Below are positions 1-9,865 of a stretch of 37,251 bases of DNA, one piece after another. The notes under the pieces are model-generated. The model did no database searches. It saw only the letters and a list, made by a program, of their open reading frames with translations, and was not told the DNA's origin. The stretch is from an uncultured Fidelibacterota bacterium. Its GTDB lineage: Bacteria > Marinisomatota > Marinisomatia > Marinisomatales > UBA1611. A program made the position numbers and the translations under genes. Location of the stretch: the NCBI GenBank assembly GCA_913043185.1, contig CAJWMI010000004.1:1-37251 (forward strand), read 5' to 3'. Position 1 is the stretch's first letter. Every line of letters starts with the position of its first letter.

Positions 1-819
1 TCAACAATTTTTTCAGGTTACATTATTGATTTAGATTTGATTGATACTAATACTATCAGACGATTTATAGGAAATGAAATGGAGAAAGTGTATACAACTA
101 AAAAAGAGAAAAGGTCATATGGAAGTAAAACAATTGCTAGAAGATTAGCAGCTATAAAATCGTTATTTAATTATTTATACAATTTTGAAAAAATAAAAGA
201 TAATCCTGCTATGCATTTTAGAACCCCAAAAACAGATAAAAATTTGCCTGTGATTGTAAGAGAGAATGATATTGTAAGTTTAATGGAAGAACCAACAAAA
301 AACCCTATAACAAATGAAATTGAAGGGGAAAGGGATCACGCGATTTTAGAAATGCTTTATGCAACAGGGCTCAGACTAAGTGAACTGCTTAGCATAAATA
401 TTTGTGATATAGATAAAAAAGATAAGCTGGTTAAGGTTATGGGAAAAGGAGGTAAAGAGCGTATTGTTCCTATAGGAAAAGTGGCTTTAAATTCAATCGA
501 GAGCTATTTAACAAAGTTGGGTAAATCTATTAAATCAAGCTATGAGGACCCACTTTTTGTAAATAAAAAAGGTAAAAGGCTACCTAAACGTACTCTACAG
601 AGAAGGATTAAAAAATATTTAGAAGTGACTATGGGAGGTGGGACTGTGCACACGCTTAGGCACACGTTTGCTACACATTTAGTTAATAGTGGTGCAGATA
701 TATTAACCGTAAAAGAATTACTTGGTCATAATAGCCTGTCTTCCACACAGCATTATACTCGTCTTAACCTAGAGAAAATAAAAAAAGTTTATCAAGAAAA
801 ACATCCACACGGAAAATAA
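1..819 (+). CDS. xerC: Tyrosine recombinase XerC, 5' end outside window
   Basis: A tyrosine site-specific recombinase that, with a partner, resolves chromosome dimers at dif. The reading frame is open back to base 1 (in-frame residues [12 protein letters not shown] precede the TTG at 37), and these look like the SAM-like N-terminal core-binding domain, so the true start lies upstream of the window. Visible catalytic landmarks are the arginine in GLRLSELL, the lysine region [22 protein letters not shown] (H-x-x-R), [14 protein letters not shown] (second His and the nucleophilic Tyr). The C-terminus ([11 protein letters not shown]) matches the usual XerC ending. It lies 5 bp upstream of pckA with no terminator between, so the two may be cotranscribed although their functions are unrelated. 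XerC rather than XerD is chosen from the overall sequence and C-terminal tail. An integrase is unlikely because no mobile-element context is present. Confidence 0.88.
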
Positions 820-2491: not shown

Positions 2492-2516
2492 TGTATGCGA
2501 TAAAAATAAGCATACA
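2492..2516 (+). other. Short inverted repeat upstream of the aptamer
   Basis: TGTATGC (2492-2498) and GCATACA (2510-2516) form a perfect 7-bp stem with an A-rich 11-nt loop. It ends immediately before the P1 stem of the SAM-II aptamer. It is not part of the known SAM-II fold. It may be a 5' stabilising hairpin, or it may stack on P1. Confidence 0.4.
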
Positions 2517-2570
2517 CGTCGTGATTTGAACCCTATTGCCGCGACATAAAATAATGGTGCTAAAAAGGTT
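2517..2570 (+). promoter_or_regulatory. SAM-II riboswitch aptamer (SAM_alpha class)
   Basis: The segment carries the SAM-II signature in order: P1 5' strand GTCGTG (2518-2523), conserved GATTTGAACC, TATTGC, P1 3' strand CGCGAC (2540-2545), an A-rich linker, then AATGG and the near-invariant GCTAAAAAGG (2559-2568). P1 pairs over six positions including one G-U. The loop AACC (2529-2532) is complementary to GGTT (2567-2570), which is the expected H-type pseudoknot contact. It resembles the structurally solved marine-metagenome SAM-II RNA block by block, as I recall it. It sits directly before metH, a methionine-pathway gene, as expected for a SAM sensor. The class is best known from Alphaproteobacteria and marine metagenomes. 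Confidence 0.9.
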
Positions 2571-2573
2571 AAT

Positions 2574-2606
2574 AAACCCGATTAGCATCGACATCGGGTT
2601 TTTTTT
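2574..2606 (+). terminator. Riboswitch-controlled intrinsic terminator abutting metH
   Basis: AAACCCGAT (2574-2582) pairs with ATCGGGTTT (2593-2601) across a 10-nt loop, and the T-run spans 2599-2606. The last T is immediately followed by the metH ATG at 2607. The hairpin begins four bases after the aptamer, so it is probably the expression platform. Its arm AACC (2575-2578) is complementary to GGTT (2567-2570) of the aptamer, which offers an antiterminator pairing in the ligand-free state. Confidence 0.85.
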
Positions 2607-6155: not shown

Positions 6156-7091
6156 ATGAGAATAAAAGATAAAATAAAAAGGCCAAGAAGGCCTGTGGTT
6201 GTATATGAGATATTGCCACCAAGAGAAAAGGACGGCACGCTTAACTCATATGCTGCAAATATTAGTTCACTTTTATCACAAACGCATATTGATGCGATCA
6301 ATATCCCTGAGGTTAGAGATGAGATCGGTCGAGGAAAGCGACCAGTAAAAAATCAACTCAGGGCTGAGCCAAGAGAATTTGGAAAATTATTACAAGATAT
6401 TGTCGGTATTGAGTCTATTGTTAACAGGGTCGTGGTGCACCAAACTCTTAAGAAAGAGATGATCTGGTTTGAAGAAACATATAATAAATATGAGATAGAG
6501 AACCTGATCACTGTAGGTGGTGAATCAAGAAACATTACATATCCAGGTCCTTCGGTAAATAAAGCTTTAGAGGCTATCAAACAAAATGAAAAATTAAATA
6601 TATTGTGTGGCGGAATCTCAATTCCAAGTAGAGAAAAAGAGTCTCTAAAGCTGATTGAAAAAAGTAAAAATGGATCTGAATTTTTTACGACGCAAGTTCT
6701 TTATGATTCATCAAAGATTATAAGAATGATTTCTCACTATCAAAAAAGATGTGATGAACAAAATACTTTTCCGAGACGAGTATTACTTAGTTTTGCACCG
6801 GTAAGTTCAAAAAAGAATATTGATTTTTTAAAATGGCTAGGTGTGGATATTCCAGTAAATACTGAAGAATATTTAAATGAGAATGATCAAAAAATGACCG
6901 AAAGGTCTATGGAAATTTCTATTAATGTTTTAAATGAAACTCTAAGATTTTTAAATGAAAACAAAATTGTTGTACCAATAGGACTAAATGTTGAACATAT
7001 TATGTCCTATAATTTTCAAGCGTCAATCGAAATGCTTCAGGAACTTGCTCGTATTTATAGAGAGTTTTGTATCAAAACAGATATTTATTAA
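6156..7091 (+). CDS. metF: Methylenetetrahydrofolate reductase-like protein (divergent MetF)
   Basis: Probably reduces 5,10-methylene-THF to 5-methyl-THF, the methyl donor for MetH encoded 9 bp upstream. At 311 residues it fits the bacterial single-domain TIM-barrel reductase (about 290-310). YEILPPREK at residues 17-25 matches the family N-terminal E-x-x-P-P signature, with E18 in the place of the catalytic Glu. The strand that normally ends in a RGD-type motif reads TVGGES (120-125), so the FAD-contacting Asp is not obvious, and the rest of the protein is divergent. Context strongly supports the folate role. A related reductase that transfers electrons or one-carbon groups in another way is the alternative. 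There is no terminator before metK, only an 86-bp gap. Confidence 0.68.
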   Translation: MRIKDKIKRPRRPVVVYEILPPREKDGTLNSYAANISSLLSQTHIDAINIPEVRDEIGRGKRPVKNQLRAEPREFGKLLQDIVGIESIVNRVVVHQTLKKEMIWFEETYNKYEIENLITVGGESRNITYPGPSVNKALEAIKQNEKLNILCGGISIPSREKESLKLIEKSKNGSEFFTTQVLYDSSKIIRMISHYQKRCDEQNTFPRRVLLSFAPVSSKKNIDFLKWLGVDIPVNTEEYLNENDQKMTERSMEISINVLNETLRFLNENKIVVPIGLNVEHIMSYNFQASIEMLQELARIYREFCIKTDIY

Positions 7092-7177: not shown

Positions 7178-8359
7178 TTGTCAAAATATTTATTTACATC
7201 CGAGTCTGTTACAGAAGGTCATCCTGACAAAGTCTGCGATGCAATTTCTGATGCCATTCTTGATAATTTACTATCACAGGATCAGGAGTCACACGTAGCT
7301 TGCGAAACTTTAGCAACTAATGGATTGGTCGTGGTTTCCGGTGAGGTTAGATCTTCTGGCTCTCTTGATGTTGAAAATATTGTTAGAGAGACCTTATCGG
7401 ATATAGGATACACTGATGAGGCAAAAGGTATGGATAATAATAGCGTTGATATTCGTGCTATTATTCATGAGCAGAGTCCGGAAATTGCACAGGGTGTTGA
7501 CTCCGATGATATTTCAGAACAGGGCGCAGGTGATCAGGGTCTAATGTTTGGTTTTGCTTGTAAGGAAACTGAAGAGCTAATGCCTCTTCCAATACAAATA
7601 GCACAACGTTTGACAGAAAAGCTAGCAACTATTAGAAAAGATGGTACCCTATCATGGCTAAGGCCGGATGGGAAATCTCAGGTTACCGTTGAGTATGATG
7701 GTTTTACAGCTATCAGGGTTACAAAAGTAGTTATTGCTACACAACACGATGATATGTTAGATAAGTATGGTTCTGAAAAAGATGAATTGAGTTTTGTTAG
7801 GAAAGAGGTTATTAATCATGTAATTATTCCTGTTTTGGAAAGTTATGATATACCATATGAAAGTGAGTTTATTGTTAATGGAACCGGAAGATTTGTTTAT
7901 GGTGGACCAGCGGCCGATACAGGGCTTACAGGAAGGAAGATCATCGTTGACACATATGGAGGCTATGCTCCTCATGGAGGAGGCGCATTTTCTGGAAAAG
8001 ATCCATCAAAGGTTGATCGTTCAGCTGCTTATATGTCTAGATATATAGCAAAAAATGTTGTAGCAGCAGATTTGGCTGAGAGGTGTGAGGTGCAGCTATC
8101 TTATGGTATTGGTGTTGCTGAGCCTACATCATTCTATGTGAGGACATTTGGTACTGGTATTATCAGTGATGAGCAATTAACCTCATTATGTTCTGAGATA
8201 TTTCCGCTTCGTCCTGGTGAAATAGTAAAACATTTAGATCTTAAAAAGCCAAGATATTATGTGACATCTGCGTATGGACATTTTGGACGAAATGGAGAGA
8301 GCTTCACATGGGAAAAAATAGATCTGTCAGATAAATTAAAATCAGCAGTAAATAATTAA
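7178..8359 (+). CDS. metK: S-adenosylmethionine synthetase
   Basis: Makes SAM from methionine and ATP, releasing phosphate and pyrophosphate; it acts as a cytosolic homotetramer in most bacteria. The 393-residue protein is the standard length and shows [14 protein letters not shown] near residue 8, [10 protein letters not shown] near 116, and the P-loop-like [19 protein letters not shown]. The start codon is TTG at 7178, supported by an AGGAG seven bases upstream and by the normal [11 protein letters not shown]-terminus. It uses the methionine made by MetH and precedes ahcY by 11 bp. Its product is the ligand of the SAM-II switch at the head of the cluster, closing a feedback loop if transcription runs through from metH. 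Confidence 0.97.
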
Positions 8360-9813: not shown

Positions 9814-9837
9814 TATAAACTCAATAAAAACAATAGG

Positions 9838-9865
9838 AAACCCTACATTTATTGTGGGGTTTTTT
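9838..9865 (+). terminator. Intrinsic terminator after ahcY
   Basis: AAACCCTACA (9838-9847) pairs with TGTGGGGTTT (9853-9862) across the loop TTTAT, a 10-bp stem with one G-U pair, followed by a T-run ending at 9865. It marks the end of the metH-metF-metK-ahcY unit. Confidence 0.9.

What the first reader, a model, noticed from the sequence alone, without database searches (positions are those of the whole stretch)
2517..2606. SAM-II riboswitch with an intrinsic terminator that ends on the metH start codon
The leader carries a near-canonical SAM-II aptamer (P1, GATTTGAACC, TATTGC, GCTAAAAAGG) and, four bases later, a 9-bp terminator hairpin whose U-tract touches the ATG. Many SAM-II switches are thought to act by hiding the Shine-Dalgarno in the pseudoknot. 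Here the aptamer's AAAAAGG is 38 bases from the ATG and metH has no other ribosome-binding site, so control is more likely by transcription termination. The surrounding genes point to an FCB-type host rather than Alphaproteobacteria, where SAM-II is best known, which would extend its range.
Basis: partly seen in the sequence, partly recalled or inferred. Interest (0 to 1): 0.85.

Follow-up and report, generated by a model that had tools for sequence, protein, structure and literature searches.

The report
SAM-II riboswitch controlling methyl-cycle operon
A short RNA switch that senses the methyl donor S-adenosylmethionine sits before the methionine-recycling genes of a marine bacterium and most likely stops their transcription right at the first gene's start codon; the switch class is known, but here it recurs across a phylum where I found no published report of it, with its own wiring.

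Summary
Window 2508-2584 matches Rfam SAM_alpha (SAM-II) at 34.0 bits, just under the 36-bit gathering score. A 9-bp terminator hairpin (2574-2582/2593-2601) runs into a U8 tract touching the metH ATG at 2607. The host is in the FCB phylum Fidelibacterota (Marinimicrobia/SAR406): 109 of 245 genomes have SAM_alpha hits, and 94 of 98 window-type metH genes have one within 250 nt upstream. In 23 Pseudomonadota leaders the terminator pairs with a strand 8-12 nt further 3'. The unit is metH-metF-metK-ahcY, then a terminator-like hairpin. Most likely it is a SAM-responsive transcription OFF switch, perhaps also blocking ribosomes. The range claim was too strong: SAM-II in the Bacteroides group, and SAM-II with terminators, were published in 2005-2007. 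Added here are the phylum, the switching strand and the terminator/AUG fusion. SAM binding could not be tested.

The parts
2518..2522 (+). SAM-II P1 stem, 5' arm (GTCGT)
2523..2540 (+). aptamer loop GATTTGAACCCTATTGCC with the conserved GATTTG and ATTGC boxes; AACC 2529-2532 can pair with GGTT 2567-2570 (P2 pseudoknot)
   Evidence: Rfam SAM_alpha alignment; positions; the pseudoknot is read from the family's known structure, not folded here
2541..2545 (+). SAM-II P1 stem, 3' arm (GCGAC)
2559..2568 (+). conserved aptamer 3' strand GCTAAAAAGG
   Evidence: aligned to the family consensus GCUAAAgAGG
2556..2563 (+). antiterminator 5' strand GGTGCTAA, overlapping the aptamer 3' strand
   Evidence: for recurrence in relatives; fold
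2574..2582 (+). terminator 5' arm AAACCCGAT
2582..2589 (+). antiterminator 3' strand TTAGCATC: last base of the terminator 5' arm plus seven loop bases
2593..2601 (+). terminator 3' arm ATCGGGTTT
2599..2606 (+). U8 tract that directly precedes the metH start codon
2607..6146 (+). metH, B12-dependent methionine synthase, 1179 aa
   Evidence: Pfam; 78% identical to L001 over 1-1179
6156..7091 (+). metF-like methylenetetrahydrofolate reductase, 311 aa
   Evidence: Pfam MTHFR E 5e-6
7178..8359 (+). metK, S-adenosylmethionine synthetase, TTG start, 393 aa
   Evidence: Pfam; 90% identical to L001
8371..9813 (+). ahcY, S-adenosylhomocysteine hydrolase, 480 aa
   Evidence: Pfam
9835..9865 (+). terminator-like hairpin 21 nt after ahcY, likely end of the unit
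   Evidence: 13 pairs, 4 G-C; consensus match only

Best explanation
It is a SAM-II riboswitch that works as a transcription OFF switch for a metH-metF-metK-ahcY operon. When SAM is plentiful it holds GCUAAAAAGG (2559-2568) in the aptamer, the terminator 2574-2601 forms, and RNA polymerase releases at the U8 tract just before the AUG. When SAM is scarce, GGUGCUAA (2556-2563) pairs with UUAGCAUC (2582-2589), the terminator's 5' arm is enclosed, and transcription enters metH. In read-through RNA the same hairpin, 5 nt from the AUG, would also cover the ribosome site, so a second, translational effect is plausible. Shown by sequence: aptamer, terminator, antiterminator complementarity, gene order, conservation. 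Inferred: SAM binding, ligand-dependent switching, termination efficiency, co-transcription of the four genes, any translational effect.
For: SAM_alpha match with the conserved boxes. 98 of 126 SAM_alpha hits in the phylum lie before metH by BLASTP, two more assigned by eye; 94 of 98 window-type metH genes have one. Of 101 metH leaders examined, 100 gave a terminator hairpin. In 99 leaders (two dropped) the 11 nt ending in GCTAAA pair with their own terminator by at least 4 bp in 99 and at least 6 bp in 83; mean score 15.7 against 13.9 for permuted partners (best of 5000 permutations 14.65) and 10.2 for shuffled terminators. The signal peaks at this strand when it is slid. TTAGC lies in 45 of 99 leader terminators but 4 of 368 other terminator-like hairpins; TAGC in 65 of 99 against 19 of 368. 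Swapping partners between 40 disjoint pairs of relatives lowers pairing in 20, raises it in 7, 13 ties, sign p = 0.019; six slid controls p 0.12 to 1. For the window the computed terminator probability is 0.03 free and 0.94 with 2558-2568 blocked, while blocking 2546-2554 or 2523-2537 leaves it at 0.03-0.04.
Against: No ligand or expression data. The Rfam score is below the gathering score. Only 72 of 99 leaders pair the full GCTA tetramer with the terminator, and at the neighbouring positions 61, 60, 40 and 39 of those 72 form standard pairs; same-branch double changes on the metH tree were few (3, 3, 2 against 1.6, 1.6, 1.3 expected), so strict compensatory evolution is not proven. A weaker pairing signal also appears 24-30 nt upstream (z 3.2 to 4.2), so part of the permutation signal may reflect relatedness. 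Over 99 leaders, blocking the aptamer strand raises the computed terminator probability by more than 0.2 in 49, but a control block does so in 39, so the folding test is specific only for the window. In 55 of 99 leaders the terminator already has probability 0.5 or more when free (44 below; median 0.59); there the switch would have to be kinetic.
Confidence: 0.8

Rival explanations
1. Dual control with an important translational part: SAM locks the aptamer, the terminator hairpin 5 nt before the AUG blocks ribosomes in read-through RNA, and the antiterminator state leaves the U-rich stretch open as an SD-less initiation site.
For: The first ATG lies 2-10 nt after the terminator 3' arm in 81 of 99 leaders; metH has no SD-like motif while metF and ahcY and metK (read by eye) do; 20 of 28 window ORFs lack one, so SD-less initiation seems common here.
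Against: No expression data. A hairpin next to the AUG is also what a purely transcriptional switch would leave behind. 18 of 99 leaders have the first ATG 16-26 nt away or none found in the stretch searched; two of these look like TTG starts (L097, L135, by eye).
Confidence: 0.35
2. Translation control at a distance, as in Sinorhizobium meliloti metA: the AAGG in the aptamer serves as a Shine-Dalgarno for an AUG 38 nt away, and the terminator is SAM-independent.
For: The precedent has a SAM-II aptamer with an SD-like motif, then a terminator, then the used AUG 74 nt on (PMC9373788, passages seen). GG within 4 nt after GCTAAA occurs in 97 of 99 leaders.
Against: The GG is needed for P2 anyway. 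That paper could not predict a SAM-II-driven antiterminator for metA; here one is predicted and recurs.
Confidence: 0.07
3. A fixed attenuator or a decayed riboswitch: terminator and aptamer remain but no longer respond to SAM.
For: Score below the Rfam gathering level; the window's terminator loop is 6 nt longer than that of L001.
Against: The conserved boxes, P1 and the antiterminator complementarity are intact, and the window is the clean case in the folding test.
Confidence: 0.05
4. The aptamer senses another methyl-cycle ligand such as S-adenosylhomocysteine.
For: ahcY and metH are in the unit; such genes are typical SAH-riboswitch targets (general knowledge, partly in PMC4239095 passages).
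Against: SAM-II discriminates strongly against SAH in the tested A. tumefaciens RNA (PMC1273637, passages seen), and the family's conserved boxes are kept here.
Confidence: 0.04

Closest known systems
SAM-II (SAM_alpha, RF00521) riboswitches of Alphaproteobacteria with intrinsic terminators (e.g. predicted S. meliloti metZ)
   Same: Same aptamer architecture and conserved boxes; terminator after the aptamer; OFF logic proposed (PMC1273637 passages; PMC2258182 passages and section 9; PMC9373788 passages).
   Different: Proteobacterial targets named in the passages of PMC4239095 that I saw are metY, metA, metX, metC, hom, metW, not metH. In 23 Pseudomonadota leaders the strand that pairs with the terminator lies 8-12 nt further 3' (17.3 against 12.4 shuffled at +8; 11.0 against 10.9 at the GCUAAA strand); in 99 Fidelibacterota leaders it is the GCUAAA strand (15.7 against 10.2).
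[quoted passage not shown]
   Same: SAM-II part linked to a terminator, SAM-V part to translation (PMC9481103 passages; tandem also in PMC2704228 passages).
   Different: Here a single aptamer, a single hairpin and metH as target; SAM_V scores only 18.5 bits against a cut-off of 41.
S. meliloti metA SAM-II riboswitch
   Same: Aptamer, then terminator, then the used AUG (PMC9373788 passages).
   Different: There the terminator is not predicted to respond to SAM and the SD acts at a distance; here the terminator touches the AUG and an antiterminator is predicted.

Membership tests
SAM-II riboswitch (RF00521) | Covariance-model match | tested here: inconclusive
   34.0 bits, gathering 36, E 4e-6 in 401 bases; relatives L002 and L057 pass the cut-off at 39.7 and 43.3 bits, L001 and L003 do not
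SAM-II riboswitch (RF00521) | P1 stem | tested here: met
   GTCGT/GCGAC, 5 pairs incl. one G-U; a best-register search gives 5 of 5 pairs in 100 of 101 leaders, but P1 varies little, so it carries little covariation
SAM-II riboswitch (RF00521) | P2 pseudoknot between loop and 3' strand | tested here: met
   AACC/GGTT in the window; CC in the loop in 90 of 99 and GG after GCTAAA in 97 of 99 leaders; sequence complementarity only
SAM-II riboswitch (RF00521) | Located before methionine/SAM metabolism genes | tested here: met
   metH-metF-metK-ahcY
SAM-II riboswitch (RF00521) | Binds SAM and rejects SAH | not testable with these tools
   needs in-line probing or calorimetry
Terminator/antiterminator transcription attenuation | G+C-rich hairpin followed by U-tract before the gene | tested here: met
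   2574-2606; not listed by the loop-8 consensus scan
Terminator/antiterminator transcription attenuation | Alternative hairpin that excludes both terminator and aptamer | tested here: met
   2556-2563/2582-2589, -11.3 kcal/mol; shares or encloses bases of both
Terminator/antiterminator transcription attenuation | Alternative hairpin kept through compensatory change | tested here: inconclusive
   supported by permutation, slid, hairpin and sister-pair tests; same-branch double changes too few to prove it
Terminator/antiterminator transcription attenuation | Ligand-dependent termination | not testable with these tools
   needs in vitro transcription
SAM-V riboswitch (RF01826) | Covariance-model match | tested here: not met
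   18.5 bits, cut-off 41, E 1.5

The most novel reading that the evidence does not exclude
A phylum has built its own SAM-II output: the terminator carries the complement of the aptamer's conserved GCUAA strand, and its U-tract doubles as the upstream region of an SD-less start codon, so one hairpin stops RNA polymerase and, if that fails, the ribosome, in this window for the complete activated-methyl cycle including SAM synthetase.
Probability: 0.3. Interest if true: 0.6.

Novelty: new member of a known kind. Interest (0 to 1): 0.4.

Why it matters
It puts SAM-sensing control of the methyl cycle into Fidelibacterota (SAR406), for which two literature searches listed no SAM-II study (listings only). 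It gives 99 natural variants of one switch with an antiterminator strand unlike that of the proteobacterial sample, a good set for testing how riboswitch outputs evolve around a fixed aptamer. The terminator/AUG fusion makes it testable whether one hairpin controls both polymerase and ribosome where many genes start without a Shine-Dalgarno. The Rfam gathering threshold misses it in the window and in 56 of the 109 genomes with hits (53 pass).

Tried and rejected
Own-genome search: no whole genome is held for the window. SAM-V and SAM-II long-loop models: 18.5 and 14.8 bits, rejected. MicC at 24.4 bits (cut-off 90) is mainly the terminator hairpin. Strict tree test for same-branch double changes in the antiterminator: too weak to count. 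Ensemble-folding test over all 99 leaders: not specific, since a control block gave 39 rises against 49. The SD-absence argument was rejected as evidence on its own. Start positions of the Pseudomonadota leaders were judged by longest ORF and often gave negative distances, so I make no claim on terminator-to-AUG distance there. Viral origin of the side-find tandem elements: one exact pattern scan of viral contigs gave 0 matches, which excludes little. The groups of G246, G247 and G677 are named from the record titles of L004, L006 and L019. SAM-II before metH as such is not claimed as new: a search for the two words with riboswitch listed 10 papers, of which I saw passages of three for other terms (PMC9481103, PMC2704228, PMC4239095) and read none for this.

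Dropped rows: 126 SAM_alpha hits (E up to 0.01) were read. 98 have metH downstream by BLASTP; L093 (only about 30 nt of coding sequence before the contig end) and L119 were added by eye; with the window this makes 101 leaders. L171 (runs of N, no terminator) and L208 (weak terminator) were dropped, leaving 99. Eight GCTAAA anchors misplaced were corrected. L121, L170 and L205 run off contig ends, L209 looks like a chance hit, and 22 further hits are the other, often tandem, type. The 98 window-type metH genes are the rows down to E 6.1e-112; that list was itself cut further down. The metK place list was cut too. In the Pseudomonadota sample the 30 best-scoring loci were fetched, of 77 genomes with hits; 2 had no aptamer by my pattern and 5 no terminator, leaving 23, many closely related.

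Full report
OBSERVATION. The leader of metH reads as the first stage described. P1 is 2518-2522/2541-2545, the conserved loop 2523-2540, the 3' strand GCTAAAAAGG 2559-2568, and the terminator arms 2574-2582 and 2593-2601 are followed by eight T (2599-2606) and the ATG at 2607. Rfam's SAM_alpha model scores 34.0 bits over its full length, two bits under its gathering score, so a default scan lists nothing.

HOST AND CONTEXT. The best metH match in genome contigs is an unnamed bin (L001): metH 78%, PEP carboxykinase 78%, metF 81%, metK 90%, ahcY 86% identical in the same order. The next are Candidatus Neomarinimicrobiota / Marinimicrobia records (L002, L003), the phylum now named Fidelibacterota, FCB group. 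Downstream of metH lie metF, metK and ahcY and then a terminator-like hairpin at 9835-9865. The gaps between the four genes are 9, 86 and 11 nt by ORF coordinates; that they form one transcript is inferred. The switch would then head the whole activated-methyl cycle. In relatives this order is partly kept: of 94 SAM-II/metH loci, metK lies 3-7.5 kb downstream on the same contig and strand in 27, elsewhere or on another contig in 47 (some contigs simply end), and its place was not in the cut list, or absent, in 20.

CONSERVATION. SAM_alpha was sought in 245 genomes of the phylum: 109 have a match at E up to 0.01, 53 over the cut-off; 14 control genomes gave none. At E up to 1, 10 of the 14 controls ring, none over the cut-off, so weak hits alone mean little. 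Of 126 matches, 98 have metH directly downstream and two more were assigned by eye. From the other side, 98 metH genes are of the window's type (rows down to E 6.1e-112); 94 have a SAM-II match within 250 nt upstream. Of the four others, G134 shows the aptamer by pattern and a terminator by eye (L231), while G202, G006 and G223 show none; the intermediate G016 and G021 and 14 fetched leaders of more divergent metH-like genes also show none by my pattern. In samples of other phyla SAM_alpha was found in 16 of 296 (group of the Saprospiraceae genome G246, E up to 0.001), 1 of 132 (group of the Zixibacteria genome G247, E up to 0.001) and 77 of 398 (group of the Marinobacter genome G677, E up to 0.0001).

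ANTITERMINATOR. In the window GGUGCUAA 2556-2563 can pair with UUAGCAUC 2582-2589 (8 bp, enclosing GGUU/AACC; -11.3 kcal/mol) against -9.6 for the terminator and -5.4 for P1. The minimum-energy fold of the growing chain takes up the antiterminator by 2590 and keeps it to 2606. Blocking 2558-2568 as a stand-in for the SAM-bound state moves the terminator probability from 0.03 to 0.94; blocking 2546-2554 or the loop 2523-2537 does not. In 99 metH leaders the 11 nt ending in GCTAAA pair with their own terminator by at least 6 bp in 83. Own pairs score 15.7, permuted 13.9, shuffled 10.2. The signal peaks at that strand (z 9.2 at offset 0, 8.0 at -3, 7.7 at +3), with a weaker one 24-30 nt upstream (z 3.2 to 4.2). 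TTAGC occurs in 45 of 99 leader terminators and in 4 of 368 other terminator-like hairpins of the window and 14 fetched loci. Swapping between 40 disjoint pairs of relatives favours the own partner 20 to 7 with 13 ties, p = 0.019; the nearest control, 30 nt upstream, gives 18 to 9, p = 0.12. Against this, only 72 of 99 pair the full GCTA, and same-branch double changes on the metH tree are few. The folding test over all leaders was not specific: 49 of 99 respond to blocking the aptamer strand, but 39 of 99 to a control block.

A DIFFERENT SWITCHING STRAND. In 23 Pseudomonadota leaders with a terminator, the strand that pairs with the terminator lies 8-12 nt further 3' (17.3 against 12.4 shuffled at +8; own above shuffled in 21 of 23), and the GCUAAA strand does not pair above chance (11.0 against 10.9). 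In 99 Fidelibacterota leaders it is the reverse (15.7 against 10.2 at the GCUAAA strand; 9.7 against 9.5 at +8, where 78 leaders could be tested). The proteobacterial sample is small, best-scoring and made of related genomes.

START CODON. The first ATG lies 2-10 nt after the terminator 3' arm in 81 of 99 leaders; two of the other 18 look like TTG starts at the same place (L097, L135, by eye). metH has no SD-like motif, but neither have 20 of 28 window ORFs (ATG-only longest ORFs, so some starts are misplaced), so this alone does not argue for termination. The hairpin sits within a ribosome footprint of the AUG (general knowledge), so a translational effect in read-through RNA is plausible, but unproven.

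LITERATURE. SAM-II was described with occurrences in the Bacteroides group and with putative terminators in many representatives in 2005 (PMC1273637, passages). [quoted passage not shown] S. meliloti metZ is predicted to terminate and metA uses an SD at a distance (PMC9373788, passages). Proteobacterial SAM_alpha targets named in the passages seen do not include metH (PMC4239095). The search Marinimicrobia + riboswitch listed 2 papers; two or more of SAR406, riboswitch, Fidelibacterota listed 4, of which 2 hold the word riboswitch; seen as listings only, none with SAM-II in the title or the abstract start shown. So the class and the kind of mechanism are known; the phylum, the switching strand and the terminator/AUG fusion are what is added, as far as these searches show.

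VERDICT. A SAM-II riboswitch by sequence and structure, most likely a transcription OFF switch (0.8). Ligand binding and switching are untested.

Noticed in passing
L190/L221 (G112), L149, L155, L156, L185, L196; Bacteroidota sample L211/L222: Tandem SAM-II pairs away from metH: a first aptamer with a terminator, about 110 nt later (start to start) a second aptamer, in several followed by what looks like an SD-hiding hairpin; in L190 the stretch GCAGGTCTCC is the complement (with two G-U pairs) of the second aptamer's GGAGATTTGC (by eye). Tandem bi-mechanism SAM-II is already published, 44 tandem examples (PMC9481103, passages).
   Followed up: partly
L222:5160-8531; L223:9785-14238 (-): Genes after such SAM-II elements include a SAM synthetase gene (Pfam), with a DUF6745 protein in L222 and an AAA ATPase in L223; in G131 (L223) it is additional to a metK on another contig. 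A von Willebrand-like protein and a small QGD protein are judged by eye only. Looks like a SAM-controlled accessory cassette.
   Followed up: partly
L221:15187-15902: A lone first-type SAM-II element with terminator before a pair of small genes that look like an antitoxin and a RelE-like toxin by eye; not scanned.
   Followed up: no
L213, L215, L210: In the Bacteroidota sample SAM-II also stands before metH-like genes (L213, L215) and, in tandem, before a metK-like gene (L210), by eye.
   Followed up: no
window 2583-2592: The terminator loop is 6 nt longer than in L001, as if ATCGAC or GACATC had been duplicated; the window's terminator is not listed by the loop-8 scan.
   Followed up: partly
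window 2492-2516: A perfect 7-bp inverted repeat TGTATGC...GCATACA just before P1; not seen in L001 (by eye).
   Followed up: no
99 metH leaders, 24-30 nt upstream of the GCTAAA strand: A weaker own-versus-permuted pairing signal with the terminator (z 3.2 to 4.2); unexplained, possibly relatedness.
   Followed up: no
window 37-819: Phage_integrase-family recombinase gene upstream of PEP carboxykinase, also in L001 at 71% identity.
   Followed up: no
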